This document shows positions 1,009 through 50,654 of a stretch of DNA of 64,000 nucleotides, one piece after another. This DNA is from Anthopleura xanthogrammica (Eukaryota; Cnidaria; Anthozoa; Actiniaria; Actiniidae). Under the pieces are notes generated by a model. That model did no database searches, was not told the origin of the DNA, and saw only the letters and a list, made by a program, of their open reading frames with translations. Within the stretch, counting starts at the first letter, position 1. Each line of letters opens with the position of its first letter. Where the stretch lies: positions 11,995,611-12,059,610 of the forward strand of contig OZ025215.1 in NCBI GenBank assembly GCA_964019055.1, read 5' to 3'. The position numbers and the translations under genes were made by a program.

Positions 1009-1218
1009 CTACGCTTCCGTATCATCAGGAGATATGTTCTTACTGAAACCCTGACCAACATCCTCGTAGTCTTGTGCTGGTGCATACTTCTTGTGATGTA
1101 GTGTTTCATATTCAGTGTTTACTCTTGGTTTTAAGTCCATGTATTGCTCATGTCCCGTCATGCCTTGCGTGTGTGGTGTTTCATTTTTTCCAGGTCTGTT
1201 TGCAGGCTCTTGTATCGA

Positions 1219-1502
1219 CTAGTAAATCGTGTCACTGCTTTGTCTTGGTTTTAATTCCATGTAACCTGGAGTTTCTATTTCGTCAGCTTTTGCAGTTTCC
1301 TGTCTTCTTGAATTTTTGAAGACGTAATCTTGATAGTTTGAGTTGTCCATGACGTCATTCGTGATCCCTGTTTCATCTGTCTTGCTCTTCATTTTTTTCT
1401 CATGATTTTGTTGTTTTTCTTTTCGTAGCCGGTATACCAAGTAAACGATGCAGATAATCAGACCAAGGATGATCAATGCAAGTGGAATGACGTAAGGTAC
1501 AA
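1219..1502 (-). other. A1 transmembrane and tail exon with premature TAG
   Basis: The exon opens in phase 1 and encodes a helix rich in Ile, Leu and Val, then a Lys/Arg stop-transfer stretch (YRLRKEK) and an acidic tail containing NYQD and GYMEL. The TAG at 1219-1221 replaces the Gln that follows the next Tyr in A2 (DTVYQ in A2, DTIY then stop here). The original frame stays open for another 70 codons to a TAG at 1009-1011, still encoding YMDL and YETL, so the nonsense change looks recent. Confidence 0.8.
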
Positions 1503-4500
1503 CTGTTAAGTAATCAAAAGATCACATGACTATCTTATTACTTGACTATACCTAAGATCCTTGTCACAAAGGAGAATTTACATATGTATATATATGCAAC
1601 ATCAATTACATATATTTATTCATTACATTGCAATGCACTGTGATAAAGGGCAGGTCTAGGTACCACGAAAATGTGGCTTTTTTCTGTAAATAAGCCCCAT
1701 TACCCGCGTGCGTCACTCCGTCTCCCATTTCCATCGTGTTCTCTGCTGGTCCTGCTGAGAGGGAAGTAGGGGTTGGCTGTAGCTCTGTAAAGGAATCGGC
1801 AAACCCTTTTTAAAAACAGCTATTTTTGATACGGGGCTTTTGTGTTTTCAATGCTCTTACTTGCAAAAGGTTTAAATGCTGTGTATTTCTTCAATTCCAC
1901 TCTGTTTATTCGGTAAATAACCGTTCTTTCACTGTTTGTAGCAGTACATACATAGGTACCAAACTCCTTGTCACTTTTAAGGCTTATAATCAAATTGTTT
2001 CCCCTTATCTTGACAGTTGGGCTATCAACAACTAAGGGAGATCCTGTTTTTCTCCAGAGGTATTTAATTGGTTCATGTCCACTTGTATAACAGCCAATAG
2101 TGACCTCGTCGCCTTTTAAAGCCCAGATCGTCGAATTGGAATATTCTGTTGGATCTAAAACGACAAATAATGTAAGCTTACTAAAACAAAGTAACCAGGA
2201 CTTTAATATATTGTATTGTTTTTTTTTATCTGTTTTGTTTGTTCATTTGTTTGTGTTGTTGTTATTCCTTGTTGTTATGTTTTTTATCCCTTTTTTTTTG
2301 TTTATCCTTTTTTTTGTGCTAGGGAAGTAATATTTTTATATTTCCTTATTCAATTTTTTTCTAAATCGAAAAATCTTAACAATTAACAACAATATTGAGC
2401 TTTATACCTTGAGTTACTTCAATTGTAGCTACCACTGCTGCTTGGCCCGCGTAAATGTTCTTTAAATAAGTAAAATACGAAAAATCGGCATCAAGTTTAA
2501 TTTTAATTAACATGTAAAAGTAGTAGTCTGATATTTTATCATATTTTATTTTATTTTATTTTGACCATTAGATTTTGGTATCATAGGTATAGAGTAGAAT
2601 CACTCTGATATGACAAAAGTCATTTGTAATCATATTAATCATAATCTTAGTCTGATCAACTTACTCCAGGATGATTAGTAATCGCTCTTTCCCTTTAGAT
2701 AATACGACAAAAGTAATGTGTAATTTATAATAATTGTTAGATCTGAATAAGCATTTAGCACATTTTCGTTTAGTATCCTTTTGTTCTGTTCTCAAGTATC
2801 TTAGCCTTTGTTCTATTCGTCACATTCTTTAGTATTTTTCGTTATTGTTAGTTGTCCCTCAGGAGTTCGTACCGCTTTATATACGCCCTATATGATAATC
2901 TTTAGTTAGTTGGTGCTCGTCGTTCATCCCGTCGCGATCGTACACAATTGTAAGTTCTTCGTTTTTCCTTTTAGATCGTTTTTTACAGTTTCTTGTAGTC
3001 CTGTGTTTCTTGTTATTTCACTTTATTTACTCCTTTATTTATTTACTATTTGTAGTCTTTACCTTACATGTAAGAGTGTGGAATTAAATGTATTTGGGAT
3101 GTAGCACCGACAATAATCATAATCTCTGTTCTATCTACTTACTCCTTGATGTTCAGTAATCGCTCTTTCTGCAATAGCATAGGTCTTTCCTTTGTCTAGT
3201 TGTACGTTTTCATATTTTCCGTATTTTTTATTGTCACCAACAGGAAAAGAAGACTTCAACTCGTTTGGTTTCAGTTCTGCTGTGACGTAAAACTCTTTTC
3301 CATCTTTGTAGTCACTGATATTTGTTGGTAAGTTACTGGCATCTTTGTTCCCTTTTATTACGATAACTTGATATGAACTGAAACATGTTAAGAGTGAGGT
3401 TAATAGTGGATACGGGTGTATACTGAATTCACTATCTTTTACAGCTACTACTAGGTTATCCTCATACTAAAAGGTGCTGATTGCTACCACATGTTGTACT
3501 GAGCCCATCTGTCTTTGTTCATGAAAAATCGAAAAACACCCTGTCCTCCGATCGCGCCCGTGTACTGTTAACTGGATAAGTCTGCGCGAGATAGTGATCA
3601 AGGGTAGATCAACTGAAGAAACTTATGGAATCCGAAGAAAAACTTTCTTTTCCTTATGACGATTTCCGTTAATCTTCATCATGCATCACTGATTGTTTTA
3701 GAATATTGTACTGACTTCTTCTCCTGCCCTCGAAAACCAAATGACATGTATTAATATATATCTACCTGATTGGTCCATTGATGGGATCAACTGACCATAA
3801 TGGAACGTTAATTTTGTCCTTGAGAGTCACAGAATTCCCTTCAGGCTTGACGGGTTCTACGAGATTTGAATATGAAATATGAATCTTGCTGTAGGCAGTG
3901 AGGCAGAATACAAAACCAGCTTAGTTTATGGTACTTACTGTCAATGTCTGTGTCTCCTGTAATTGATGCACTCTTTTCACTCTTACCACATGCTGTTGAC
4001 GCCGTTACCCAGAATTCATAGCTTGTACCAGGCACTAGACCGTCGATTACCATGCTTGTTTGTGCTCCATTCTGCGTGTAAGTCTTCGAAAATGAGTACT
4101 GTGGCCAGTATGATTTAGAACCTTTAACATCAATCTAAGTCGAGTGGAATAAACTCCAATGAGTTATCAAAAATAAAAACACTGATACAAAAAATTCGTT
4201 GAAACTAATGAATAGTAATGACTGAAACGTAATCGTACCGTATATTCATCAACAACCAATGATATTGGCGAGGGTTTTTCCCATCTAACTTTAATAGAAG
4301 TTTTTGTTGGATTTCCGGTCTGTACATTAAAAGGTGTACCAGGCTCTGGATAGGTAAATTGATGTCGTTAGTATTATTTAAGAAAATATTATCAACATAT
4401 TTCAATATAGAAAAAAATCATTATCTTACGCGCATGCGAAGTCAAAACCTCAACAGTACTGCTTGGTCCTGGTCCAATACTCGTATAACCCCTGACAGAT

Positions 4501-7500
4501 ACAGTATAGTTTGTACACATTCTAAGGTTGTACAATGTGTACTGTGTACTCTGTGTTGTAGCAGTATACATCTCCTGTAATAATCTTCTTGAACGTCTCC
4601 CAACAACAACGAATGACCAAAAGATCTCGTAGTTCGTAACCACGCCATTGCTTTGAGCTGTTGTTAACGGTTGCCAGGTAACCAGGAATGTTGTATCGTT
4701 TATCTTTGTTGCTGTTGTATTTTGTGGGCCAATATCAGGAACTGAGAGAAAGAGGTTAAAGAAAACTTAAGGTATCAGGATATGATTAGGACCCCTTTAC
4801 GCGCTACCTCAAATTTCGCACGGGCTTTACAATATTTTGCCATAAAAGTATACATTTTCTTAAAGCTAAATAAAGGTAGTTTTCAAATATATATTCAAAA
4901 TTGTCTAATTTGGAACATAAAAAAAGTTGTTGAGTTCAAAGTGACATTCTACCTCACTTCATTTGACAACTTCCCGCAGGATCAGAATTTCCGCCTTGTC
5001 GATCAAAATTACATTAACATACCCTGTGGATAATGAACTTCAAAACAGTGTCTCAGATTTTTGATATCTTTTTTAGATCGCGCGCAATCACGTGTTAAAT
5101 CCGGATGTTTGAATTTTCGGAGGTCATAATTGCAAAATATACAAATTTGAGACAATGTTTTTTAGACCGCTTTGCGATTTATCATAATCCAAAGTTTCAG
5201 TTTGATCCGATGTAATCCGAATGAGCTACAATGTTTTAAGAAAGTTATTTTGGTCACTCAAAAACTGCGGAGAAACCCGATTAACTTTTTTTGTGTCACA
5301 AAACAGAAAATTTCAAATTGATTTTTGAAAACTACGTTTATTTAGCCTTCAGAAAATGTATACTTTTATATAATAATATTGGAAATGCAGCGCAAAAATG
5401 TGGCTCGCGCGTAAAGTAATCTCGAAGGCCTCGAACGTATCCTGATACCTTAAGATATATATGTAATCAATTAAGAAAAGTCAATACTATTGATTTTTTT
5501 TACTTAAAAGTAACTTTACATCTATTATTTATATATTTCTTACTATCTTCTGGTATTATTATCAAAGAAATGCTACTTTTAGGACCCATGCACGTACAAA
5601 GCTACAGCCACAATTAAGTTGTAAATTGTGTATTTTTTTAAGATTCGTTAGCGTTTCCATGTCAACTTTGCCCACATCAGTCTGTTTTTCAGTTGTGTAA
5701 GATGTAAAACCAGTACGAAATAATAGTAGTAATATAAACAGTAATAAAGCTCCTTCTATAAATATATACCAGCAGTCAACGTTCTAACATCCAGCCAACT
5801 GCTCCACAATCCCTGTCCCACAACACTTATTGTATTCATTCTGATGCTGTAGTTGGTGTATGGCTTGAGGTGTTTTACAATGTAGTTAAAAGTAGGATGG
5901 TGTGCATTGTGGGTGACGATTGATCCGCTCTGATTATGGAGTTGTATAGTGTACGAGGTGAAGTTACCAACGTCAACAGAAGCAGTCATTGCTGTCCAAC
6001 TCAGTGTTATCGACCTCTTGTTCGGTGGTGCCGCTGTCACTTTTGGCGCTTTCGGTACGTCTGCATTATAAAGAGAGCCGAATTTATGAAGTCAAAGAAA
6101 GTGCAAAGCGAAAATCTTAATGAATGATGAAATAAAAATGTTATTCCTTGACTTACTCAGATTCACCGTCACTTTCACCGATGCCTCATCCATTCCTCCG
6201 CTTGGCACGTAGCTTGGGTACGTTGCCCTACACGTGTAGAACGTGTTACAGGCCACAGCTCGTGTGTTGGGATCTTGTCTTGTACAATTATACTTGGACA
6301 CCACGTCTTCAGCAGAGATAAACTGTACTTGTAGTGTTGATTGTGTTGCACCGTTGATCTTTGTTCCATTGTTAAACCACTGTATGTCAGGTGTTGGTTC
6401 ACCAAGTACACTACATGTTAATGTTCTGGTCGAATTTCCTTTGATGCTCTGAAGAATGAGGTCAGCAGTATCTAAAATTACTTTTGGAACAACAACTGAA
6501 ATGACAATTAAATCATCGTCACTTAAGAGAATTGAATACTTCTATCAGATGTAGGAATCTCATTTCCGTTCCCGTATGACTTACCAATATCGCATCCATA
6601 GAGATCAAATCGTAGACAATGTCTACCCCCTGAGTTGTGGGTCTGAGGAATAATTCTGACATAACGTGCTGCTATTGGATGACGTAACCAGTTGACCTTG
6701 ACGCCATTCCTATTGGTATTGCCTTCTAAATTCTAAAAAGTAAACAAGAAATAATGGAAAAATTTAGAACCAAATTTGAAATACTTTTATTGATATTTGA
6801 ACAATATAGACTTTCTAAAAAACTCACAAATTTTAAAACCAGAAACACCAGTCATAAGAATTAGCTAGAAAAAGATGTACTCTTGAACCCTGGCATGATG
6901 AGACAAGACAGTTGTAAGTCCAGAAGTTATTACCTTGACAACCAGTCCTTCTTTGTAATCGTTCCAAGTTGTGCTATCAAAGCTGTAGCTAACTGTGTAT
7001 GACGTCACCCATGCATTGATACCATCTATTGGGTTACCTTGCGTTGCAATACCTGTCACTGTCTTGACTTGTGCAAGGTCAACCTGTATGTGTTCAGTAT
7101 TGCCTGTTGATGGGCTGCACCAAGACCAACTACCATACAGACGAGTAAGTCGTGCAACATATGTGCTCCAATGAGAAGATGACGTAATCATTGCGTCTGG
7201 TATTTGTAAATTCTCAAGACCAAGTGACGAAGTGCAGCCTTTGCAAAATAGACAAAAACATTTTTTTTTTTGCTTATAGGTATGACATGCAACGATACAT
7301 TTCACTTTTTGCTTACCTAATGGAAGTCCTTTTAAATCCACTCTAAGGGTTTTGTTGTTATGATAATCAGTTGGAATCACACGAACAAACTTGGCTCTGA
7401 ACGGGCTTGTTAATGTATTGGTAACCACCGTAGAACTGTCAGTGTTACCGATCAACTGTAGAATAAGGCAAGTGCAACGTTAGTACGAAAATATCTATTA

Positions 7501-10098
7501 ATAGGGGGTATATTTGACACGGGTTTCATCGATTTGAACTTATGTTTGGAAACAGATTTATACTTTTTTAAAAACCTGAACAAACTTTATATCGTAAGTT
7601 TATATCAGTCGAAATAATGTATCGAGGAACGCAACTGATAAATTCAGGTGTCACGTTTGTTGAGTTTCACGTGTCATTTTTATCTAAATCGATAATTTTG
7701 CGTGACATGAATTTCTTTTGCTACCCTTTCAAACTGCGTAATACTCTTCTCAGCACTTGTATATTTTTGCTGATTTGCTGTAGTGATCCTCTTCTTTTAC
7801 TTTTGAAATGATCGTCCTAGTTAACCATAGTTAATGGAGTCCACTCCATAAAACTATTAGTTAACAAATCATGGATCAGCCTACCTTCTCATCGCCAGAA
7901 TCGTCGATATATCTTGTCCAGTCTCTATTGTTTGTTGAGTATCATACTTTTTAACCCATTCATTCAATGAAATTTACACGAAATATGTCTGTTTCATTTA
8001 CCTTATCGGCTCCATTCTCTCTGTATGTATTCCACTGATTGTTGTTTGTTGAATACGATATTTTATACTTTGTAACATATTCATCCGCACTGTACCCATT
8101 CCCTTGAGTAGCTACAGCACATATGTAGAACACAGCACCAAGATCAACCTGAAGATATTCACCGCTATTTTTGTTTGATTGTGTAGCCCATGCTGAGGAT
8201 GCACCCAGTCTCCCTTTATGAGGCAAGTAAGAATTACTGTTTGCCGATGTTGCTGTAAACCTGTGATCAGGTACCAAGGCAGTACTCGGTATACCAACAC
8301 TGTGTCTGGAACAAGCTGATGAATAGCACGGAGAAGAGAATATTACTTTAATGAGAAACATTTACTCGTTTTTGGTGTTGTAGTACCATGCATCTAATAT
8401 ACATCAGGATTACCAGAGTGACTTTCTCATTTGAACAATAACAATAAGAAATATGAAATGATTTAAAAAGGAGGAAAGTAAGGGAGAATAGAATAAAACA
8501 TAAATACAAAAGAAGAGAAGAGAAAAAACATTTAACAGTTTACCTGTCTGGGAAGGATATCCATAGATCTCTGCCCTCAAGCACGCTGTACCAGTGTGAG
8601 ATGTCTTGGGTAAAATACGTAGATACCTTGCAACAATACCGTGATAAAGAATTCGTCTAACCACCGTTGTACGATTAAAGTTACCGTAGAATATCTTAAG
8701 ATAAAAACAAACGAAGAATGAAGAATGCTGGCCAATGTTAAACGTAAACACTTATTTCTACATCACCCAAATAACATCGTTGCCACATCACATTATAGTT
8801 ATTGCCCTCATGATAAGCGGTCAATGTCGTACTATTGGTGTATGTATTTAACTGATACGTCTTCACCCACTGATCTATCATACTATCACTAATGCTACAT
8901 TACCCAGTCAGTATTGTTCTCCTGATAAGTGGTCCATGTTGTACCATCAGTAGATGTATCTATCTGGTACGTCTTCACCCACTGATCTATCATACTATTA
9001 CTAATGCTACATACCCTGTCAGTATTGTTCTCCTGATAAGTGGTCCATGTTGTACCATCAGTAGATGTATCTATCTGGTACGTCTTCACCCACTGATCTA
9101 TCATACTATCACTAATGCTACATTACCCTGTTAGTATTGTTCTCCTGATAAGTGGTCCATGTTGTACCATCAGTAGATGTATTTATCTGGTACGTCTTTA
9201 CCCACTGATCTATCATACTATCACTAATGCTACATTACCCTGTCAGTATTGTTCTCCTGATAAGTGGACCATGTTGTACCATCAGTAGATGTATCTATCT
9301 GGTACGTCTTCACCCACTGATCTATCATACTATTACTAATGCTACATTACCCTGTCAGTATTGTTCTCCTGATAAGTGGTCCATGTTGTACCATCAGTAG
9401 ATGTATTTATCTGGTACGTCTTTACCCACTGATCTATCATACTATCACTAATGCTACATTACCCTGTCAGTATTGTTCTCCTGATAAGTGGACCATGTTG
9501 TACCATCAGTAGATGTATCTATCTGGTACGTCTTCACCCACTGATCTATCATACTATTACTAATGCTACATACCCTGTCAGTATTGTTCTCCTGATAAGT
9601 GGTCCATGTTGTACCATCAGTAGATGTATTTATCTGGTACGTCTTTACCCACTGATCTATCATACTATCACTAAAGCTACATACCCTGTCAGTATTGTTC
9701 TCCTGATAAGTGGTCCATGTTGTACCATCAGTAGATATATTTATCTGGTACGTCCTCACCCACTGATCTATCATACTATCACTAATGCTACATTACCCTG
9801 TCAGTATTGTTCTCCTGATAAGTGGTCCATGTTGTACCATCAATAGATGTATTTATCTGGTACGTCTTCACCCACTGATCTGCCATGTTATTTCCTTGTG
9901 TAGCCACAGCACAAATAAGGTGAGATGTCCCCAAGTCAATCTGTAGATATGGATTAGAGTCACTTGTAGAGGCACACCACGATGAGCCTGATGTGTAATG
10001 TAGTCTGGCATTCTTGGCTGGGTGTTGAGTAGAAGAAGCTGTTATACTGCCATCTTGAATAGCTCCTGATTCCATGCCAAGAGGAACGTTTTCACAAC
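1219..10098 (-). CDS. Receptor copy A1: 3xFA58C-Ig-FN3s-Ig-TM, 5'-incomplete, tail truncated
   Basis: Type-I membrane receptor copy, probably for adhesion or recognition at the cell surface. Exons, 5' to 3': FA58C-b 10098-9797, 8694-8544; FA58C-c 8315-8002, 7455-7317; FA58C-d 7238-6934, 6732-6585; Ig 6495-6157; FN3 6060-5770; FN3 4741-4430; FN3 4345-4239, 4134-3939; juxtamembrane FN3-like 3856-3766, 3377-3143, 2459-2408; Ig 2154-1861; TM plus tail 1502-1219. All splice phases agree and every exon is open (about 1185 codons). The first exon begins at an acceptor in phase 1, and no signal-peptide exon or first FA58C domain lies before the copy ends near 10500, so the start is missing. The tail stops at a TAG (1219-1221) where A2 has Gln. 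Either a decaying copy or a gene that borrows 5' exons from A2. It is the fullest example of the family A membrane-proximal region. Confidence 0.75.
4767..5453. mobile_element. TTAA-flanked MITE in A1 FN3 intron
   Basis: Inverted termini GGTATCAGGATA (from 4771) and TATCCTGATACC (to 5449) are each bordered by TTAA (4767-4770 and 5450-5453). This is the target duplication typical of piggyBac or Kolobok type transposons. About 680 bp with no convincing coding sequence, so non-autonomous. It lies in the intron between FN3 exons 6060-5770 and 4741-4430. Confidence 0.8.
8790..9797. repeat. 111/112-bp minisatellite from FA58C-b exon tail, about 9 units
   Basis: Tandem units carry the last part of the FA58C-b exon (encoding DQWVKTYQ through YQENNTDR), its splice donor and 22 bp of intron. 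The phrase atgctacat recurs at 8892, 9004, 9115, 9227, 9451 and 9786. Most units are 112 bp. Some lack one base (111 bp, 37 codons), so neighbouring units read in one frame, as in the minus frames 8895-9104 and 9454-9774. The array sits in the intron between the two halves of the domain and next to the true exon end at 9797. Related arrays occupy the same intron of A2, B1 and B2. Confidence 0.92.
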
Positions 10099-10719
10099 CT
10101 ATGAAATGAGGAAATTGGAAGCTAAAATTAATTCTTTGTAAAGGAATAGCTGGAGCTTTCAATATTATAGATATGGAGTAATCGTAAGTGATTGCTGATT
10201 TGATTACTCTGATTATATCTTAACTACATAGGATGATGAGTGTTTCCGAGAACCCATGCAGTGCATTTGTATCAGTTTGGACTTGATGTCACAGCCTATT
10301 AGTCCGGAAGCCCTGTAGTTTTGTGATTATCAATAATCATATGACTTTTGAACGACCTTAATTTCAGTGCAAGTACCATGGTTGAAATGTCAGAAGAAGG
10401 AAAACATTTCTATTACGCCCATTGAAGTGCATCTCTGAAGCGGTGAAGTGGATTCCATCTAAAGTTTTAAAATAGCGCCTGCGTCTTTGGCTGTAGAATG
10501 CTATACTCAGTATTGTATATATATAAAATATAGAACATATTCGTTGTTATTGTGTTAATGTAGAGTATCGTGACACTCAAAGAACTTCCGCTTCAGAACC
10601 GACTAAAAAGCTAGAAAGTGTATTTTATTCAGTGAATGAATAAGGAACAGCAGGATATATGAATGGTATTATACTCTCACTCTTTCGTTATTGACTCTTC
10701 ATTCAATAACCACTAGGCG
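10099..10719. other. Spacer upstream of A1, no exon found
   Basis: Positions 10099-10500 match the A2 intron at 18459-18860. Positions 10500-10719 are unique AT-rich sequence. An in-frame ATG at 10162 precedes FA58C-b, but it lies on the intron side of a good acceptor (TTTCATAG) and its leader is not signal-like. I see no promoter motif I would defend. Confidence 0.6.
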
Positions 10720-11825: not shown

Positions 11826-12283
11826 CTACGCTTCCATATCCTCGTAGTCTTGCTCTGGTACATACTTCTTGTGATGTAGTGTTTCATATTCAGTGTTTAC
11901 TTTTAGTTTTAAGTCCATGTATTGCTCATGTCCCGTCATGCTTTGCGTGTGTGGTGTTTCATTTTTTCCAGGTCTGTTTGCAGTTTCTTGTATCGACTGG
12001 TAAACCGTGTCACTGCTTTGTGTTGGTTTTAATTCCATGTAACCTGGAGTTTCTATTTCGTCAGCTTTTGCAGTTTCTGGTTTTCTTGAATTTTTAATGA
12101 CGTCATCTTGATAGTTTGAGTTGTCTATCACGTCATTCGTGATCCCTGTTTCATCTGTCTTGCTCTTCATTTTTTTCTCATGATTGTGTTGTTTTTCTTT
12201 TCTCCGTTGCCGGTATACCAAGTAAACGATGCAGATGATCAGACCAAGGATGATCAATACAAGTGGAATGACGTAAGGTACAA
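11826..12283 (-). other. A2 transmembrane and ITAM-like cytoplasmic tail exon
   Basis: Single helix (about 20 residues, IILGLIICIVYLVY), a basic RQRRKEK stop-transfer stretch, then about 120 cytoplasmic residues. Tyrosine motifs in order: NYQD; GYMEL (near 12035); VYQSI (near 12000); QYMDL (near 11917); EYETL (near 11884); KYVPEQDYEDME at the end. YMEL and YQSI are 9 residues apart and YMDL and YETL are 7 apart. Both fit the ITAM pattern YxxL/I-x(6-12)-YxxL/I, and the second has canonical spacing. TVYQSI also fits the TxYxxI switch-motif form. Function is inferred from pattern only. Confidence 0.85.
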
Positions 12284-15200
12284 CTGTTAAGAAATCAAAA
12301 GATCACATGAGTATTTGATCTCGTGATAAACGCTCTTGTGATCACATTTACACATCTCATAACCATTAGTTATTTCATTAGATATGATCTATTCCCCAAT
12401 TTATTTTACATTATATTGCAAAAAGGGCAGGTACCGAGAAGAACATTCCACAAAATTAACACTTTCTGCCATTCATAACTAAAGATGTATCATAAAGACG
12501 TTGTCACGACGGCTGGCTATCCCCCTTACTCCATCTCAATTAAAATCGATTCGCAGTCCCTGTTGAAGGGGACTGGAGAGTAGTTAGAAAACGTTAAATG
12601 ACAATCTTGTAACAGCAAAATGTAGAAAAGCAAAACACCGTTAACATCGTGATACCTTCCTTTGCTTTGCTTTCACTCTTTTCTCTTGTATCTGCTTTGC
12701 GTGTTATGTATTTCTTCAATTCCACTCGGTTGATTCGGTAAACAACCGTTCTTTCGCTGTTTGTAGCAGTACATACATAGGTACCAAACTCCTTGTCACT
12801 GTTAAGGCTTATAATCAAATGGTTACCCCTTATCTTGACGGCTGGGCTATCAACAACTAACGGAGATCCTGTTTTTGTCCAGGAGTATGTTATTGGTTCA
12901 TGTCCACTTGTATGGCACCCAATAGTGATCTCGTCGCCTTCTAAAGCCCAGATAGTTGAATTGGAATATTCTGTTGGATCTGAAATGACATATAATACAA
13001 GTTTACTAAATTAGTCTGTGTAGTCAAGTCCCCACGGCAAACGCAAAATATAGTGAAGATATTGTTCTTTTCCTTATGATTTTTTATTTTCTAAGTATAG
13101 TTTGCACAAACTCTAAGGGTGTACAGTGTGCACTGGGTAGCCTGTGGTGTAGCATTAAACATTTCCTGTAATGATCTTCGTGAACGACGTTCCACAACAG
13201 CTAATGACCAAAAGATCTCGTACTTAGTAATCATTCTTCAATTTTAAAAATATATATACTACTAATTTTTAATGTACAGTGATATCTAGCATTTTTCTCT
13301 CAAATAAAGTCGCAGTATTGCATAAAACAAGTTTTTTTACGGCTCGAGATGCATAGTAGTGCCCAGTCTCCGCGCGTCATTCAAAATGGCGGCCAAATTT
13401 TCAAACTTTAGGACATAATATCTCCATAACAAGAACGGTAACCCCCATTTTTGTTGGAATTCCTTGTGGCTCTTTAGTTTTTTTTAATATATAACCAAAA
13501 AGAAAGCGGGAAAATTAAGTAGAACTTCCACTAATAGCGGGATATAATTATGAATTCAGTAGTACTGGCACGAATTTTGAAACTTGCGTTTTTTGCTCGC
13601 TCACCTAATTCTTTAAAAGGCTGTGATCAAAAATTCCATACATTTATATTCCTTAATGATACAGTGATTGAGAACATAATATAAAACTAGTTTCATATAA
13701 AAGACGCTAAAAAATTCAAGTAAAACCTACGATGATTTTTGAGGTTTGAGAGAGAGGTTTGACGAGGACAGTATACAACTGTAAACATCTTAAAAGACTA
13801 TTCAGGGATAGATTGAAATTGTTAACACCTTGTTAAGACAAGGAAACCGGTAGCACAGCTAATAGAGACGAGAGTAAAGATCTTTCTATATAATCAAGTA
13901 ATCTTAATGACAAATACCAGGAATTAGTGTTGAAGCATTCAGCCAACTGCTCCACAATCCTTGTCCCACAGCACTTATCGCATTCATTCTGATCCTGTAT
14001 TTGGTGTAGGGCTTGAGGTGTTTTATAGTGTAGTTAAAAGCAGGATGATGTGCATTATGGGTGACGATTGATCCGCTCTGATTATGGAGTTGTATGGTGT
14101 ACAAGGTAATGGTACCAACGTCATCAGAAGCAGTCATTGCTGTCCAGCTCAATGAAATCGACCTCTTATTCGGTGGTGCCGTTGTCACTTTTGGTGCTTC
14201 TGGTACATCTGCATTATAAAGAGAGCCGAATTTATGAGTCAAAGACATATACTTTTTTTCAAAGCAAAAACTTAATCAAGCAGCCGTATCAAAATATTAC
14301 TCATTCACTTACTCAAGTTTACCGTCACTTTTACTGCCTTTGTCTCTTTTATCCCTCCACTCGGCAGGTGAACTGGATTCACTATTCTACACGTGTAGAA
14401 CGTGTTACAGACCACAGCTCGTGTGTTGGGATCTTGTCTTGTACAGTTGTACTTGGACACCACGTCTTCAGCAGAGATAAACTGTACTTGTAGTGTTGAT
14501 TGTGTTGCACCGTTGATCTTTGTTCCATTGTTAAACCACTGTATGTCAGGTGTTGGTTCACCAAGTACACTACATGTTAATGTACTGGAACTTCCTTTGA
14601 TGCTTGGAAGGATGAGAACTTCGGCATCTAAGATTACTTTTGGGACAACGACTAAAGTGACACAAAATAATCATTACTGAATAGATTTTAATATTCCAAT
14701 CACATGTAGGAATCTCAGTCACGTTCCTACTTACATATATCACATCCATAGAGATCAAATCGTATGCAATATCCGCCTTCATAATTCAAAGGAGTAATTC
14801 TGACATAACGTGCTGCTATCAGATGACGTAACCAGTTGACCTTGACGCCATTCCTATTGGTGTTGCCTTCTAAATTCTATTTAAAAAATCCGAAAATATA
14901 CAAAAACTAAGTGAATTGTCTTTGTTGGCAATGATTCTCAATATTCTGCGAACTCAGACATTCCAAATGCTTGTTGTTAAATTTGTTTTTCGCTGCCGTC
15001 AATCAAAACTAATAAGTCGGCACCTTTGAAATTTTTGACTGGCGGCAGTGAAAAACCAAATTCCAACGGGCAACTCACAACTACAGAGTTCACAGAATAT
15101 TGAGAATCGCAGTAAAACAGCAAAATGCTTTTAATAAGCCGTCAAAAACACCAGTCATTAGTTCTGGATGTACTTTTGACAAGACTTGAATGACAAAAAA

Positions 15201-18200
15201 TCACGATCCAGACTAGTTTATTACCTTGACAACCTGTCCTTCTTTGTACTCGTTCCAGTGTGTGTTATCAAAGCTGTAGTTAACTTTGTATGACGTCACC
15301 CATACATCAACAGGTTTGCTACCTTGTGTTGCAATACCTGTCACTGTCTTGACCTGTCCAAGGTCAACCTGTATGTACTCAGTAGGGTTTACTGTTGGGC
15401 TGCACCATGACGAGCTGCCATACAGACGACCAAGTCGTGCAACATATATTTTCCAATGAGAAGAAGACGTAATCTTTGCGTCTGGTATTCGTAAATTCTC
15501 AAGACCAAGCGACGAAGTGCATCCTTTGCAAAATAGACAAAAACATTTTTTTTGCTAATTGGTATGACATGCAACGATACATTTCACTTTTTGATTACCT
15601 AATGGAAGTCCTTTTAGATCCACTCTAAGGGTTTTGTTGTTATGATAATCAGTTGGAATCACACGAACAAACTTGGCTCTGAACGGGCTTGTTAATGTAT
15701 TGGTAACCACCGTAGAACTGTCAGTGTTACCGCTCAACTGTAGAATAAGGCAAGTGCAACGTTAATACGAAAATATATATTAATAGGGGGTATATTTGAC
15801 ACGGATTTCATCGATTTGAACTTATGCTCGAAGACAGATCTAGCTAGATTTATACTTAAGAAAACTGAACGTCAAACTTTATATCGTAAGTTTATGATAG
15901 TCAGTTATAATTTATCAAGGAACGCATATTGCTGGGAATGAACTTGATTGTAGAATACGTTTAGTGTACATACATTTGATTTTAAAAACTCCTTGTCATT
16001 AGCATATTGCATGAAAAAACTTTTATAACTTCAAGACGCTGCACTCAAACTATGAAATTTATTTTGATCATTGAATAGCTCACTTCATGTAGAATCTATA
16101 CTGAAAATGTTGTCAGATGTGCCATGGGCACCTTAACGAAATACCGTACCTCCTCAGCGCCCGAATCGTCGCTGTATTTTGTCCAGTGTCTATTATTTGT
16201 CGAGTATGACACTTTATACTTTTTAACATATTGAACATCACCAGTCTTGCCAGTCCCTTGAGTAGCTACAGCACATATGTAGAACACAGCACCAAGATCA
16301 ATCTGAAGATAATCATTAGCTGTGTTTGTACTCGCCAGCCATGCTGAAGTTACACCAAGCCTTCCTTTATGAGGAAAGTATTCATTATTGAATACCGATG
16401 TTGCTGTAAACCTGTGATCAGGTACCAAGACAGTACTCGGTATACCAACACTGTGACTGGAACAAGCTGATGAATAGCACGGAGAAGAGAATATTACCTT
16501 AAGGAGTAACATTTACTCATACATCAGGATTACCAGAGTGACTTATATCAAATGATTTAAAAAGAAGGGAAGGAAAGGAGAATAAGATAAAACAAAAATA
16601 CGAGAGGAGAGGAGATCAGGAGAGGAGAGGAGAGGAGAGGAGAGGAGAGGAGAGGAGAGGAGAGGAGACATCGCCAGAAATTCCGAACGGGCATGCGCAG
16701 TTAAAGTCATGATACCTAGAAAATTCAGGGCTCAAATATGGTGGGAAAAGTATTGACAAATTTCGATAAAGTAAAATATTTAATTTTAACTGGATAAATA
16801 ATACAGCCCGAACCTCAAAAAACAATAAACTTCATTTGATCTCAATTTAATTCCGTTGGTGAGTTTTCAGCTCGGTAATTACATTTTAATGCCAAGGACT
16901 ATAATAGTCAGCCATTACCGTGGATTATCATAAGAATAACCGAACCTGGTCTCAAATCTTCGGCTCTCAGCTCAAAATAGTCAAACACGTTTTCCTTCCC
17001 GAACTTCCAATCGATTGAGGAAGTATGCCTTCAGCATTTCCCGAAATTTCAGAAGGAATATTTAAATTTTCGTCTCGGTTTCACGAGGTGAAGTTTAGCA
17101 TTAACAGGGCTTCCATTTCTGCCTCCATCTTGAGATGTAACTTGTCTTTGGAGTACAAGATGAAGCGCATTTTCACACTGAACTCTTCTAAAAGTTGTTT
17201 ATTCCGTTTATTCAATCTTGTTTAAAATCTTGGGTAAAATATCAACTGTGGAAGTGCTATCTAATGCCTTATATAACAATTTTTTTGACCGTCGAGACGC
17301 CATTATTATCGCAACCGGAAAGGTAAACATTCAATTGTCACATGATATAATAGCCCAATCACAATTGAACCTACATAATTGCTTGATTGACAAGGTAAAA
17401 ATCATGAATAATAAGCTCCGCCCAAAATGGTTTCGGAATTTCTGGCGATGAGAAGAGAAGAGAAGAGAAAAGAAGAGAAGAGAAGAGAACAGAAAAGAAA
17501 AGAAGAGATTGAAAAGAAGAGAAGAGAAGCTGACAAAAGAAAAAACATTTAACAGTTTACCTGTCTGTAAAGGATATCCATAGATCTCTGTCCTCAAGCA
17601 CGGTGTATTAGTCTGGGATGTCTTGGGTAAAATACGTACATACCTTGTAACAATACCGTTATAAAGAATTCGTCGAACCACCGTTGTACGATCATAGTTA
17701 CCGTAGAATATCTTAAGATTAAAAAAATAACGAAGAATGAGGAATGCTGGGCAATGTTAAACGTAAACACTTATTTCTACATCACCCAAATAACATCGGT
17801 GCCACATCACATTATAGTTTAGTATTGCCCTCATGATAAGCGGTCTATGTCGTACTATTGGTATATGTATCTATCTATCTGTTACGTCTTCACCCACTGA
17901 TTTATCATACTATCACTAATGCTACATTACCCTGTCAGTATTGTTCTCCTGATAAGTGGTCCATGTTGTACCATCAGTAGATGTATCTATCTGGTACGTC
18001 TTCACCCACTGATCTATCATACTATCACTAATGCTACATTACCCTGTCAGTATTGTTGTCCTGATAAGTGGTCCATGTTGTACCATCAGTAGATGTATCT
18101 ATCTGGTACGTCTTCATCCACTGATCTATCATACAGTATAACTAATGCTACATTACCCTGTCAGTATTGTTCTCCTGATAAGTGGTCCATGTTGTACCAT

Positions 18201-20930
18201 CAGTAGATGTATTTATCTGGTACATCTTCACCCACTGGTCTGCCATGATGTTTCCATGCGTAGCCACAGCACAAATAAGATGAGATGTCCCCAAGTCAAT
18301 CTGTAGATATGGATTAGAGTCACTTGTAGAGGCACACCACGATGAGCCTGATGTGTAATGTAGTCTGGCATTCTTGGCTGGGTGTTGAGCAGAAGAAGCT
18401 GTTATACTGCCATCTTGAATAGCTCTTGATTCCATGCCAAGAGGAAAGTTTTCGCAAGCTATGATCAGAAAATTGGAATCAAAAAGCAAATATTTGAATG
18501 CAATAGCTAGAGCTTTCGATGTGGACTAATTTTTGATCGGCATGCTCTGGATTACGGGGCAGATTATATCATTGGTACAGACTTGCCATGCAAGCCAAAC
18601 TGTGAATGTTTCCAAGAACCTGTGAATTCGTTTTAGTTTCGACCTGGCTGATGTCTACGTGAACCCTATTGTTTTGTGATCATCATGATTTAAGACTTTT
18701 AACGAATTAACCTTGATTTCACTGCAAGTACTAGCGGTTGAGACATCAGTTTGGAGATCTTAAAAGAAAGGTTATATTTCATCCAGTCGATTACATTTCA
18801 AAAGTGTGGTGTATCTAAAGCTTCAAAATAGCGCGTGTGTGTTTGCTGTGGAACGCTCAATATGGGTACTTATATTCCTCGACTAAAGGAAAAAAACAAA
18901 AAAAAACAAAGCGATTTGTATCTCAATTTTACTTTCTGAAATGTCACTGCATGGAGCGGTCTGATTGGACGATGATGTTTCTCTTCTTAAACAACGTTGC
19001 ATCGTCAGTTCTCCCGCGCCTCAAAGTTGAACTTTAACAATTTATGAAAGAATTAAAAACATATGTATTAATATAATTATAACTTCTATCTAAGTTCTTT
19101 CCACTGCTTTAGTTAGATATCATAAATTTTTACCTTATATTAGACATACATAAATAATTATTTTATATACTATTAGTTAGTCTTATAGTTCCATTTTTAG
19201 ATTTTCTTTCGTCTATTCTACGTTAATTGTAAAGTGCCATAGGGTTTTATATTTGGTGCTATATAAATATATTGTTACTATTTCATAATTTCGCACTCGG
19301 TATATATGCAGCATTTCTATTGATTAAGGGTTTCACCTTTTAAGTATCCATAGATCCCTACTCTCATTGTTTTCCAGGTATTGTACGTTGTAGGTATGAA
19401 TCTGATGTATCTCGCCAAGGGTTGAGTAAGGGTGTGTCTTTTTATAGTACTGTAGTCGGTGTTTCCAGTAAACCGCTGAAACAAAATAAATTCACAAAAA
19501 ATTATTTAATTTTGTCTTTATAAGTTTATTTTAGCTAGGCGGTATTTCACTTGATTCTTGATTTCCCTTGGTAAGTTTTGCTCAGACAGATAGGCATTTT
19601 ACCAAAAAAAAAGTTAAATGATTTTAGAGCATTTTCCAGCCGTCCATTTCCAGTTACAACATATTATTTTGGAAGTGTAGAAAAGTCGACTTTATTGTGA
19701 AGAGTTTGACAACTGTGATACTATTTTGTGATATGTACAGGAGAACAGAAGGGGTTGGCTGCAATAACAAGAACAAGAATAGCACTCTACCGTATTTCCC
19801 CGCCTCCCTTAGCGCAGTTAGCGACCGCAAGCAAAGCACTGCTTCATGACTGAGGTCTAAATGAGTGTATGTGTGGCTTGATTTCTCAATTTCTATTTTC
19901 ATTTTATTTTCAATTTTATTTTTTCTCACCTTTAGTGCCCCGTTCTCTTGGTAAAGCGTCCAATTTATATTATTCATCGACAGACTTATCTTATACTGTG
20001 TCACCCACTCACCACCAACACCCCGACCCTGTGTGGCTACAGCACAGATGACGTATGGAAGTCCAAGATCAATCTGTAGATGCTCATTTGAATCGGCGTT
20101 TGTGCTTGCAGCCCATCCTCTTAAGTTCCCGTTAAGTCTAGCGTGGTATGGAGAGTATCTGTTATCGAAATATGAAGTTGCTGTGAAACTGCTGTTAGGT
20201 ATGATGTATTTATTCTCTACACCAATAGTTGTGTCAGCACAACCTGTAGTAACATAACAAACAAAAAGGTCACATCAGTCAATATACTCAGAAGATACTA
20301 TTGAATTCTAATGTTTTGGTAAACAGAGTAAGGTAACTGTAACGTCTTTGGGTTTGAATTTAGAAATAATACATGGAGGAGAGCACACTTAAGCCTTCAA
20401 AAGGCATCGGTTTGTTCTTCGTCTACAAGCACATGTATATACTGTACTGCAATCACGTGACAGTAACCACGCCAGCACAATGGTATTTTCATTTTCTGTC
20501 AAAGCAAGCATTAGTCGACAATGACTCGAACTAGTTAATCAAATGTAAAAGCCAAGCGATCGTCTTGGGATGTAACGTAATAACCAAATGGTCATTACCG
20601 CTTCATACACGAGAACGATATTGCTATATGTTTTATATTTTCAGTTCAAGAATCACTCACTATTTTTATCATACATTATGAAGTACGTAATAACTAAATC
20701 AGTATATATATATGTATATATTTCAAACTGACAGATCGATCTCCGTCTAGTAGACTTGATCAGTCAACCTGATACCTCCCTGATAAGTTTTGCAGCTGAG
20801 TCTGTTAAACTTTATCTAGTAATTTAAACTTACAAAACTCACCTGCAAAAGATGTTGTTATATTGATCAGGAATATCAATCCAGTTGCGATGACCCGGAA
20901 ATAACGAGATGTGTAAATCAGTCCTTCCAT
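11826..20930 (-). CDS. Receptor A2: SP-4xFA58C-Ig-FN3-Ig-TM with ITAM-like tail
   Basis: Complete type-I receptor, 1100 residues in 13 exons. Signal peptide 20930-20843 (MEGLIYTSRY start, hydrophobic core, ends ..SFAG); FA58C-a 20243-19930, 19475-19337; FA58C-b 18458-18157, 17711-17561; FA58C-c 16466-16150, 15737-15599; FA58C-d 15523-15225, 14876-14735; Ig 14651-14313; FN3 14208-13918; Ig 12979-12656; TM plus tail 12283-11826. Exon lengths sum to 3303 bases with matching phases. FA58C domains show the family core ([15 protein letters not shown]) and bind lipids or glycans in known members. The tail carries five tyrosine motifs, including two ITAM-consensus pairs, so signalling through SH2 kinases is inferred. 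It lacks the extra FN3 and juxtamembrane exons of A1, and a remnant of one lies at 13094-13235. Intron borders are my reading of GT/AG sites. Confidence 0.87.
13094..13235 (-). pseudogene. Truncated FN3 exon remnant inside A2 intron
   Basis: The minus-strand reading ITKYEIFWSLAVVERRSR.. through TLRVCANYT matches the middle of the A1 FN3 exon 4741-4430 but has neither its acceptor side nor its donor side, and it ends in a stop. It marks the exons that A2 lost between FN3 (ends 13918) and the last Ig (starts 12979). Splicing across it is in phase. Confidence 0.75.
16617..17525. mobile_element. 780-bp inverted-repeat element in a GA-rich tract (A2)
   Basis: Termini ATCGCCAGAAATTCCGAA at 16670 and its complement ending at 17449 bound a 780-bp insertion absent from the matching A1 intron. 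It sits inside a GAGGA/GAAGA purine tract (16617-16669 and 17450-17525), so the target duplication cannot be read. No transposase seen, probably non-autonomous. Confidence 0.78.
17820..18157. repeat. 112-bp FA58C-b exon-tail minisatellite, about 3 units
   Basis: Same unit as the A1 array, with atgctacat at 17919, 18031 and 18145, in the intron between exons 18458-18157 and 17711-17561. The A1 array has about three times as many units, so copy number changes quickly. Confidence 0.9.
19040..19290 (+). mobile_element. Probable retroposon 3' tail
   Basis: AT-rich stretch ending in a GTAAAGTGCC..GGTGCTATATAAATA signature typical of LINE/SINE 3' ends in invertebrates, inside the intron just downstream of FA58C-a. 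No intact reverse transcriptase is visible. Family not assigned. Confidence 0.45.
20843..20930 (-). other. A2 signal-peptide exon
   Basis: ATG at 20930. The exon encodes a short basic-aromatic N-terminus, a hydrophobic core (IATGLIFLI) and a small-residue end (SFAG), then a GTGAGT donor in phase 1. The upstream in-frame ATG at 21023 would add a second hydrophobic stretch. I prefer the inner start because the A3 signal exon (MSILLFAHSFRV) has the same length and a matching FRVI motif. Confidence 0.8.
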
Positions 20931-21854: not shown

Positions 21855-23209
21855 AAAAGCCTGCTCAACATCCTTGTAGTCTTGTCCTGGTACATACTTC
21901 TTGTGATGTAGTGTTTCATATTCAGTGTTTACTCTTGGTTTTAAATCCATGTATTGCTCATGTCCCGTCATGCCTTGGGTGTGTGGTGTTTCATTTTTTC
22001 CAGATCTGTTTGCAGGCTCTTGTATTGACTGGTAAATCGTGTCACTGCTTTATCTTGGCTGTAATTCCATGTACGTTATGCTTCTATTTTGTCAACCTTT
22101 GAAGTTTCTGGTTTTCTTGAAGTTTTGATGACGTCATCTTGATAGTTTGAGTGGAGCATGACGTCATTCGTGATACCTGTTTCATCTGCATTTTTTTCTC
22201 ATGATTTGTTTTTTTTTCTTTTCGTAGCCGGTATACCAAGTAAACGATGCAGATAATCAGACCAAGGATGATCAATATAAGTGGAATGACGTAAGGTACA
22301 ACTATTGATAAATGAATGATCACATGACTATTGGATCACATGACTAACACGTGAATGAGGGAAGAACGTATAATAAGTCATCTATTATATATTTTCATTA
22401 CATAGTTATGTTACATTGCGATAACTCAAAGAAAAAATCTTATTTGCTAAATTTCGCTATTTTTGCATTCATACCTTCTTTCGCTTTGTCTTTATTCAGT
22501 TTATTCGCTTCTGGTTTGGTGTATTTCTTTAATTCAACCCTATTTATTTTGTAAACATCCTTTATTTCTGTATTTGTAGCAGTGCAGACGTAAGTACCAA
22601 AGTCTTTGTAGCTCCTTGGCTTTACAATCAATATTATCCCATTTAATTTAATTTCCGTACTACCATCTAGTTGAGACCCACTTTTTGTCCATGTGTATAA
22701 TGCTGTCTTATCTCCACCTGTATAACAACCAATGGTAACCTCGTCACCTTCCTGAACCCATAGTGTAGAATTTAGATACTCTGTAAAATCCACACCTGTG
22801 CATGAATGAATGAAACACTTTTTCTTCTATTTTAAGGAACATCTCAGGTACAAAGTGTAGGGTCAAGTTTCGTTCGAGTAAATTAGAGTAAATAAAGAAG
22901 TGGTCATAAATTAACATGGGGAGTTAATAAAGCTATGGATCTTATATAATTATATTAGGTAAACCTGAACTCACTTTTAGTCCTTGCCATTACCGGCGCA
23001 CTCTTTTCATTTTGACCACACCGCACTGTTGTTTGCCATTACCCAGAATTCGTAGCTTGTCCCAGGTCGTAGACCCTTGATGACTATAGCTCTGTTAATA
23101 AGGTGTTTGACTATGGTGAAGTGGTCATTGTTACCCTTAAAAAGCTGTAAGACATAGAGAACATCGTGATGGGATTTTTTGTTGTTGAGATATTTAGTAT
23201 ATATGTATA

Positions 23210-28121: not shown

Positions 28122-28375
28122 TCAAATCTCATTTTCAGCCATTTGTTTAGTGTTGGTGTGCACTTCGTTAAATATGCCTCGGTCCATCAGGAATGACGTC
28201 TCTTGTCCCAGAGAATTCTTTCGAATGATAGCAGTCATAGGAATACCAAGTTCTTTGGAAGCAATTTTCTTGCCTTGCCGTTGGCGCCAAAACAAGTAGG
28301 CAGTGATCAGGATGCATACGATGACCAAGAGGGCTAGAACGATGACAAATGGCAGATATTTTCTCCCTGCCTTTT
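28122..28375 (-). other. B1 transmembrane and tail exon
   Basis: Encodes a 22-residue hydrophobic helix ([20 protein letters not shown]), a basic WRQRQGKK border and about 50 cytoplasmic residues ending QMAENEI. There is no tyrosine after the helix, so no ITAM, ITIM or SH2 motif, unlike family A. Confidence 0.85.
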
Positions 28376-50400: not shown

Positions 50401-50654
50401 TCAAATCTCATTTTCAGCCATTTGTTGAGTGTTGGTGTGTGCTTCGTTAAATATGCCTCGGTCCATCAGGAATGACGTCTCTTGTCCCAGAGAATTCTTT
50501 CGAATGATAGCAGTCATAGGAATACCAAGTTCTTTGGAAGCAATTTTCTTGCCTTGCCGTTGGCGCCAAAACAAGTAGGCAGTGATCAGGATGCATACGA
50601 TGACCAAGAGGGCTAGAACGATGACAAATGGCAGATATTTTCTCCCTGCCTTTT
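50401..50654 (-). other. B2 transmembrane and tail exon
   Basis: Differs from the B1 exon by only a few residues near the end (EAHTNTQQ for EVHTNTKQ). It has the same helix and again no tyrosine in the tail. Confidence 0.85.

What the first reader, a model, noticed from the sequence alone, without database searches (positions are those of the whole stretch)
11826..12283. Two ITAM-consensus tyrosine pairs in the tail of an FA58C/Ig/FN3 receptor
The A2 tail holds YMEL-x9-YQSI and YMDL-x7-YETL. Both satisfy YxxL/I-x(6-12)-YxxL/I, and the second has canonical spacing. TVYQSI also fits the switch-motif form and YEDM is a possible PI3K site. ITAM/ITIM-type tails are known from vertebrate immune receptors and have been reported for Ig-family allorecognition proteins of Hydractinia. 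An ITAM-like tail on a multi-discoidin ectodomain, in a tandem multigene cluster, is not something I recognise. This is the best candidate for an undescribed recognition system here.
Basis: partly seen in the sequence, partly recalled or inferred. Interest (0 to 1): 0.85.

Follow-up and report, generated by a model that had tools for sequence, protein, structure and literature searches.

The report
Anemone receptor with twin immune-switch tail
A sea-anemone gene cluster encodes surface receptors whose tails carry two copies of the tyrosine switch used by vertebrate immune receptors, beside tyrosine-phosphatase receptors with a similar outer head, which makes it testable how simple animals may wire recognition to immune-type signalling.

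Summary
Window 11826-12283 (-) is one exon encoding a transmembrane helix and a 127-aa tail with YMEL-x9-YQSI and YMDL-x7-YETL. It is the last of 13 exons that I modelled in consistent phase (20930-11826): signal peptide, four discoidin (FA58C), Ig, FN3, Ig, TM, tail. The host looks like a sea anemone; the only named homologues found are from Actinia tenebrosa.

The pairs are conserved. In 12 aligned tails, 7 of 127 columns are invariant; 5 of the 7 are tyrosines, namely the four ITAM tyrosines and a C-terminal one. The other two tail tyrosines vary. The same kind of tail sits on an unrelated EGF/Ly6-like ectodomain on another contig and in A. tenebrosa. A Syk-type tandem-SH2 kinase gene lies about 0.4 Mb from the cluster.

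Beyond the finding: the 239-kb cluster also holds six receptor-phosphatase catalytic exons, each downstream of a copy of the shared discoidin exon. The one gene traced has the A2-type head, and an intact Ig-TM-ITAM exon pair lies 3' of it without a head of its own and in compatible splice phase.

Best reading: ITAM-type, Syk-recruiting receptors, probably balanced by phosphatase receptors. No RNA, binding or polymorphism evidence. New variant of a known kind.

The parts
11826..12283 (-). terminal exon of gene A2: TM helix plus cytoplasmic tail with two ITAM-type pairs
12213..12283 (-). transmembrane helix VPYVIPLVLIILGLIICIVYLVY, followed by basic juxtamembrane RQRRKEK
   Evidence: position read from sequence
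11991..12041 (-). ITAM pair 1 YMEL-x9-YQSI
   Evidence: both Tyr invariant 12 of 12
11877..11921 (-). ITAM pair 2 YMDL-x7-YETL
   Evidence: both Tyr invariant 12 of 12
11835..11846 (-). C-terminal YEDM; Tyr invariant 12 of 12, Met variable
12656..12979 (-). membrane-proximal Ig exon (Ig2), phase 1-1
   Evidence: Pfam Ig_3 2.4e-10; splice sites
13918..14208 (-). FN3 exon
   Evidence: Pfam fn3 5.2e-13
14313..14651 (-). Ig exon (Ig1)
   Evidence: Pfam Ig_3 6.2e-9
14735..15523 (-). fourth FA58C domain, two exons (15523-15225, 14876-14735)
   Evidence: Pfam 3.5e-18 for the first exon
15599..16466 (-). third FA58C domain, two exons (16466-16150, 15737-15599)
   Evidence: Pfam 6.4e-15 for the first exon
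17561..18458 (-). second FA58C domain, two exons (18458-18157, 17711-17561)
   Evidence: Pfam 6.8e-17 and, for the second exon, 4.7e-4 below cut-off
19337..20243 (-). first FA58C domain, two exons (20243-19930, 19475-19337)
   Evidence: Pfam 9.8e-18 for the first exon
20843..20930 (-). predicted signal-peptide exon MEGLIYTSRYFRVIATGLIFLINITTSFA, donor CAG/GTGAGT, phase 1
   Evidence: prediction only
13076..13234 (-). relic of the second FN3 exon that paralogue A1 keeps
   Evidence: 60% identity, one stop
1057..10099 (-). paralogue A1: FA58C domains 2-4, Ig, FN3, then FN3, FN3 and a PTPRU-type Fn3 that A2 lacks, Ig2, TM and tail; no first FA58C was detected; tail has an in-frame TAG directly after the second ITAM tyrosine
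21864..22790 (-). A3: Ig2 plus degenerate TM/ITAM-tail unit with frameshifts and stops
28125..40662 (-). gene B: similar head (FA58C, Ig, FN3), then other Ig domains and a TM exon whose tail has no tyrosine
50404..63416 (-). gene C: as gene B

Best explanation
A2 is a single-pass receptor of a sea anemone with an extracellular head of four discoidin, two Ig and one FN3 domains and a tail holding two ITAMs. On clustering by ligand, Src-family kinases would phosphorylate the paired tyrosines, and the anemone's Syk kinase would dock by its two SH2 domains and signal onward. Receptor tyrosine phosphatases with a similar head, encoded in the same cluster, would set the threshold by removing those phosphates. 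Shown here: a gene model, conserved pairs, Syk-type and Src-type SH2 exons, and RPTP exons in the cluster, one of those genes traced to the same kind of head. Inferred: phosphorylation, Syk binding, functional pairing, ligand and biological role.
For: Thirteen exons in consistent phase without a stop. Four ITAM tyrosines and one C-terminal tyrosine invariant in 12 of 12 tails, while two other tyrosines are kept in only 4 and 3 of 12 rows. Spacings 9 and 7 in 10 of 13 tails (others 9 and 6, 9 and 8, 11 and 8; on the motifs). The same kind of tail behind an EGF/Ly6-like ectodomain in the two C9 loci examined of three and in A. tenebrosa P0005. Tandem SH2 exons match SYK best (1e-47, 1.5e-33), then ZAP-70, with the next families near 2e-17, and keep the Arg of FLVRES / LIRE; a kinase exon of the same gene matches ZAP-70 and SYK. 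An SH2 exon closest to Fyn/Fgr. Six RPTP catalytic exons in the cluster; one such gene traced by exon matches.
Against: No transcript, phosphorylation or binding data. A full-length search found no homologue. Relatives of the tail were found only in A. tenebrosa (2 proteins) and in two unnamed contigs, so conservation beyond anemones is not shown, and the A. tenebrosa Ig-type model (503 aa) has no FA58C domain. Constraint on the ITAM blocks relative to the rest of the tail is weak in the four comparisons with A2 (Poisson 0.41, 0.17, 0.12, 0.047) and clear only in the other two, which are not independent (0.0003, 0.003). Several members are damaged (A1, A3, L011, L013, L014). Pair 1 has spacing 9, outside the strict 6-8. 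In the kinase-exon search one EGFR-named chain scored higher and TYK2 about equally.
Confidence: 0.78

Rival explanations
1. The tyrosines are docking sites for other SH2/PTB proteins (PI3K, Grb2, PLC-gamma), or are phosphorylated adhesion-receptor sites, so that the pairing is incidental and Syk is not the partner.
For: YxxM at the C-terminal tyrosine in 6 of 13 tails, and YxN forms in 7 of 13 tails, all of them outside the C10 group; many SH2 exons in the genome (50 matches).
Against: The four tyrosines occur as two pairs with narrowly kept spacing in all 13 tails, which single docking sites do not require.
Confidence: 0.12
2. The tails are inhibitory or switch-type (ITIM/ITSM) and recruit tandem-SH2 phosphatases such as SHP-2.
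For: TVYQSI/TIYQSI fits the switch form in 5 of 13 tails, and an ITIM-like match occurs somewhere in 9 of 13 tails.
Against: No ITIM match in A2, L009, L010 and L011 (0 of 4), and ITIM-like matches in the other tails fall at differing tyrosines. The residue at -2 of the four A2 ITAM tyrosines is P, T, E or T. I did not determine whether a SHP-type gene is present.
Confidence: 0.07
3. The ITAM tail belongs to a decaying, non-functional family: fast-duplicating copies drifting to pseudogenes, with tyrosines kept only by recent common descent and gene conversion.
For: A1 has a stop inside the tail; A3, L011, L013 and L014 are damaged; tail dS between A2 and the cluster copies A1, L009 and L010 is only 0.09-0.14.
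Against: A2 is open over 13 exons; tails on C9 and C13 at 29-36% identity and two A. tenebrosa proteins keep the same tyrosines.
Confidence: 0.03

Closest known systems
Alr allorecognition proteins of Hydractinia
   Same: Cnidarian multigene Ig-family receptors reported to include ITAM/hemITAM and ITIM motifs (statement read in passages of PMC12065747; the primary paper was not held)
   Different: Multi-discoidin plus FN3 head; cluster shared with receptor phosphatases; no polymorphism or fusion phenotype known here
Vertebrate ITAM receptors (FcgammaRIIA, CD3, Ig-alpha/beta; recalled)
   Same: Receptor chain with a YxxL-x(n)-YxxL/I pair, Syk-family kinase present
   Different: Two ITAMs in a tail behind discoidin domains; first spacing 9; I did not test for tail homology with vertebrate receptors beyond Pfam
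Oyster CgIgIT2 (five Ig domains, TM, ITAM; passage of PMC11999971)
   Same: Invertebrate Ig receptor with an ITAM
   Different: No discoidin domain mentioned in the passage read
Receptor protein tyrosine phosphatases (LAR, PTPRS, PTPRU types)
   Same: PTPRU-type Fn3 kept in A1 and L009; similar head on a clustered RPTP gene
   Different: A2 has no phosphatase domain
Discoidin domain receptors and neuropilins
   Same: FA58C domains; the second FA58C exon matches factor VIII, neuropilins and DDR2 among solved structures
   Different: No kinase domain; Ig and FN3 domains; ITAM tail

Membership tests
ITAM-bearing receptors | YxxL/I-x(6-12)-YxxL/I in the cytoplasmic tail | tested here: met
   two pairs in A2; two strict pairs in 12 of 13 tails
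ITAM-bearing receptors | canonical spacing 6-8 between the Leu/Ile and second Tyr | tested here: inconclusive
   pair 2 spacing 7: met; pair 1 spacing 9: outside the strict range
ITAM-bearing receptors | the chain spans the membrane with the motif inside | tested here: met
   TM and tail in one exon; signal peptide predicted only
ITAM-bearing receptors | Syk-family tandem-SH2 kinase available in the organism | tested here: met
ITAM-bearing receptors | phosphotyrosine-dependent binding of the tandem SH2 | not testable with these tools
   no binding data
ITIM receptors | [ILVS]xYxx[ILV] in the tail of A2 | tested here: not met
   none in A2, L009, L010, L011; at least one match in the other 9 of 13 tails
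Receptor tyrosine phosphatases | cytoplasmic PTP domain | tested here: not met
   the A2 model ends with the tail exon; PTP exons occur elsewhere in the cluster
Hydractinia Alr family | homologous Alr ectodomain and linkage to an allorecognition phenotype | not tested
   Alr sequences were not at hand; no population data
Discoidin domain receptor kinases | cytoplasmic tyrosine kinase | tested here: not met
   tail of 127 aa; Pfam finds only a weak TMEM154 match over the TM and juxtamembrane region

The most novel reading that the evidence does not exclude
A cnidarian paired-receptor system in which one recognition head is wired to opposite tyrosine outputs: an ITAM tail that recruits Syk, or a receptor tyrosine phosphatase that removes the signal. 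At C10:11.899-11.926 Mb the choice may be made within a single gene by alternative 3' exons, since the phase-1 donor before the phosphatase TM exon fits the phase-1 Ig-TM-ITAM unit that lies 3' without a head of its own. Such a system could underlie self/non-self or aggression decisions in sea anemones.
Probability: 0.25. Interest if true: 0.92.

Novelty: new variant of a known kind. Interest (0 to 1): 0.74.

Why it matters
Cnidarian Syk together with the CARD-CC/Bcl10/paracaspase proteins has been taken to point to ancient upstream ITAM receptors (PMC5978004, passages read; the passages shown name no cnidarian receptor). This cluster and the C9 EGF-type receptors are concrete candidates and make that proposal directly testable. 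A pairing of ITAM and RPTP outputs on one kind of head would be a different way to balance activation from the ITAM/ITIM balance discussed for Hydractinia and Botryllus (PMC12065747, passages).

Tried and rejected
A2 tail as a known Pfam domain: only a weak TMEM154 match (E 1e-4, 22.6 bits, below the 30.3 cut-off). Positive selection on the head: pairwise NG86 gave dN/dS mostly 0.2-0.9 with uneven dS between exons of one pair (A2-A1 0.03 to 0.38; A2-L009 0.10 to 0.70), read as mosaic exchange and not as selection; values above 1 (F2b A2-A1; F4a L011-L013; FN3c and tail A1-L009; F1b and FN3a B-C) rest on few changes. Rows for exons that one locus lacks (for example F1 of A2-A1; F1 and F2a of A2-L009) are hits to non-orthologous domains and were not used. 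The full-length homologue search found none. A MALT1-type family search did not complete, nor was a PTP family search.

Full report
Setting. The window is C10:11995611-12059610 of a 290-Mb genome in 125 contigs. The nearest named proteins are from the sea anemone Actinia tenebrosa, so the host is most likely an actiniarian; I did not identify the species.

The gene. On the minus strand, 13 exons from 20930 to 11826 join in consistent phases with GT-AG borders and no stop; the borders are my choice from the sequence. The product is 1100 aa: predicted signal peptide, four FA58C domains (each in two exons), Ig, FN3, Ig, TM, tail. Pfam confirms the domains. The finding's coordinates are the last exon, which holds both TM and tail. 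Paralogues A1 and L009 keep three more FN3-type exons, the last of PTPRU type; A2 keeps only a relic of one. No first FA58C domain was detected in A1.

The tail. It has YMEL-x9-YQSI, YMDL-x7-YETL and a C-terminal YEDM. In 200,000 shuffles of the tail one had two such pairs. I collected tails from eight further loci of the genome (C10: L009, L010, L011, L012; C9: L015, L016, L017; C13: L018), two A. tenebrosa proteins and two unnamed contigs. Twelve of the 13 have two strict-consensus pairs; L012 has one strict pair and two with Met at +3. Ten of the 13 have spacings 9 and 7. In a 12-row alignment (L017 left out as near-identical to L015, L012 and L018 shortened by hand), 7 of 127 A2 columns are invariant: Y57, Y70, Y97, L100, K101, Y108, Y122 of the tail. 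Five are tyrosines, while the other two tail tyrosines are kept in 4 and 3 of 12 rows (hypergeometric 1.7e-6). Against this, among the young copies the ITAM blocks are only mildly slower than the rest of the tail: Poisson 0.41, 0.17, 0.12 and 0.047 in the four comparisons with A2, and 0.0003 (A1-L010) and 0.003 (L009-L011) in the other two; the six are not independent, and A1 carries a stop.

A tail that moves between heads. Of the three C9 copies I examined the upstream exons of two (L016, L017). They carry the tail behind EGF repeats (Pfam EGF 3.8e-7 to 6.3e-5 in five exons) and a cysteine-rich domain with weak activin-receptor/Ly6 matches (best 4.4e-4, L017; L016 below cut-off), not the discoidin head. 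In L016 the exon before the TM exon joins it in phase 1; that exon had no Pfam match. A. tenebrosa P0005, named a sushi/nidogen/EGF protein by its source, has EGF domains, the same cysteine-rich domain (67% identity to L016) and YMDL-x9-YQAL plus YMDL-x7-YEKL. A conserved tail on two unrelated heads argues for a signalling module. The other A. tenebrosa protein, P0002, has Ig and FN3 domains, the PTPRU-type Fn3 and the tail, but its 503-aa model shows no FA58C domain.

The signalling partner. An SH2 scan of the genome gave 50 matches. Two adjacent SH2 exons at C10:11494257-11495232 match SYK best (1e-47 and 1.5e-33), then ZAP-70, with ABL and SHP-2 near 2e-17 and below, and keep the phosphotyrosine Arg in each. 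Kinase exons follow on the same strand by my reading; the one tested matches ZAP-70 and SYK at 1.5e-17 and 1e-15, with TYK2 close (5e-17) and one EGFR-named chain higher (2.9e-25). Another SH2 exon is closest to Fyn/Fgr. This shows that the parts exist, not that they bind. The Syk gene lies 0.37 Mb from the cluster edge.

The cluster. Copies of the second FA58C exon at 80% identity or more number 12 in C10:11877514-12086075 and 7 elsewhere; the scan scored 150 of 901 candidates, so these are lower bounds. Tails located in the cluster are of three kinds. ITAM units: 11898744, 11948853, 11996667 (A1, in-frame TAG after the second ITAM tyrosine), 12007439 (A2) and 12017474 (A3, degenerate). Tyrosine-free tails: 12023735 (gene B) and 12046014 (gene C); the only other match in the genome is at 7.04 Mb with one stop. 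Receptor phosphatases: a PTP catalytic exon has six copies at 81-100% identity in the cluster (11864793, 11885506, 11908443, 11931207, 11965872, 12103861), of 29 matches genome-wide. Each has a copy of the shared FA58C exon 7.5 to 25.5 kb upstream on its strand. Only one of the six was traced as a gene; the other five are placed by position alone. I could not fetch the whole cluster.

One RPTP gene in detail. Between 11925.6 and 11906.0 kb I found exons of all four FA58C domains (second half of the first one not detected), Ig1, FN3a, FN3b, FN3c, a PTPRU-type Fn3, a small exon, a TM exon and two PTP domains; not every splice site was checked and no signal peptide was sought. The first PTP domain has WPD, and the splice joins its signature as HCSAGIGRTG. 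Matches to solved structures are to LAR, PTPRS and PTPRF first. The head is 64-91% identical to A2 for F1a, F2a, F2b, F3a, F4a, F4b, Ig1 and FN3a, and 48% for F3b. About 6 kb 3' of its last PTP exon lie an intact Ig2 exon and TM/ITAM exon, with no second head detected between. The small exon ends in phase 1, and both the RPTP TM exon and Ig2 begin in phase 1; the Ig2 donor fits the TM/ITAM exon. Either end would be in frame. Whether both are used is unknown.

How it most likely works. Ligand clusters the receptor; a Src-family kinase phosphorylates the pairs; Syk docks by its two SH2 domains; RPTPs with a similar head counteract. Only anatomy and conservation are shown; the rest follows from known ITAM biology (recalled) and inference. 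The ligand is unknown; FA58C domains elsewhere bind lipids, glycans or proteins (recalled).

Known and new. ITAM/hemITAM and ITIM motifs are reported for Hydractinia and Botryllus allorecognition genes (PMC12065747, passages) and an ITAM for the oyster receptor CgIgIT2 (PMC11999971, passage). Cnidarian Syk with CARD-CC/Bcl10 was noted, with upstream ITAM receptors inferred (PMC5978004, passages). My ten answered paper searches (open-licence library only; two searches listed 20 of 67 and 20 of 55) listed no paper whose title or opening abstract describes an ITAM-tailed discoidin receptor or an ITAM/RPTP shared head; two searches returned none. I read passages of eight papers and the whole text of none. 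Verdict: a new variant of a known kind, well supported as an ITAM-type tail, with a clustering with phosphatase receptors that deserves experiments.

Noticed in passing
window 8800-9881, 17872-18241, 37429-37889, 61350-61805: A 112-bp minisatellite (9.7, 3.3, 4.1 and 4.1 copies) covers the 3' end of the second FA58C exon in A1, A2, B and C.
   Followed up: partly
window 1057-1521: A1's tail has an in-frame TAG directly after the second ITAM tyrosine, while the rest of the tail frame stays open.
   Followed up: partly
window 28125-28493 and 50404-50775: Genes B and C have a head similar to A2's but tails of about 55 aa with no tyrosine; the only other match in the genome is at C10:7.04 Mb.
   Followed up: partly
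L012 800-1681 (C10:9.01 Mb): ITAM tail with an internally duplicated block and Met at +3 of the second tyrosine of the first pair.
   Followed up: no
C10:11898000-11926000 (L010, L052, L053): Receptor tyrosine phosphatase gene with an A2-type head and an ITAM unit 3' of it, frame-compatible.
   Followed up: yes
L014 6482-9077 (C10:7.04 Mb): A B-type Ig/TM gene is followed 3' by a degenerate ITAM tail, the same order as gene B and A3 in the window.
   Followed up: no
window 30930-31244, 35745-36479, 53255-54164, 60089-60379: Long TGAC, ATGG, GACT and TGAGTGAG simple-repeat arrays next to or between exons, giving long spurious open frames.
   Followed up: no
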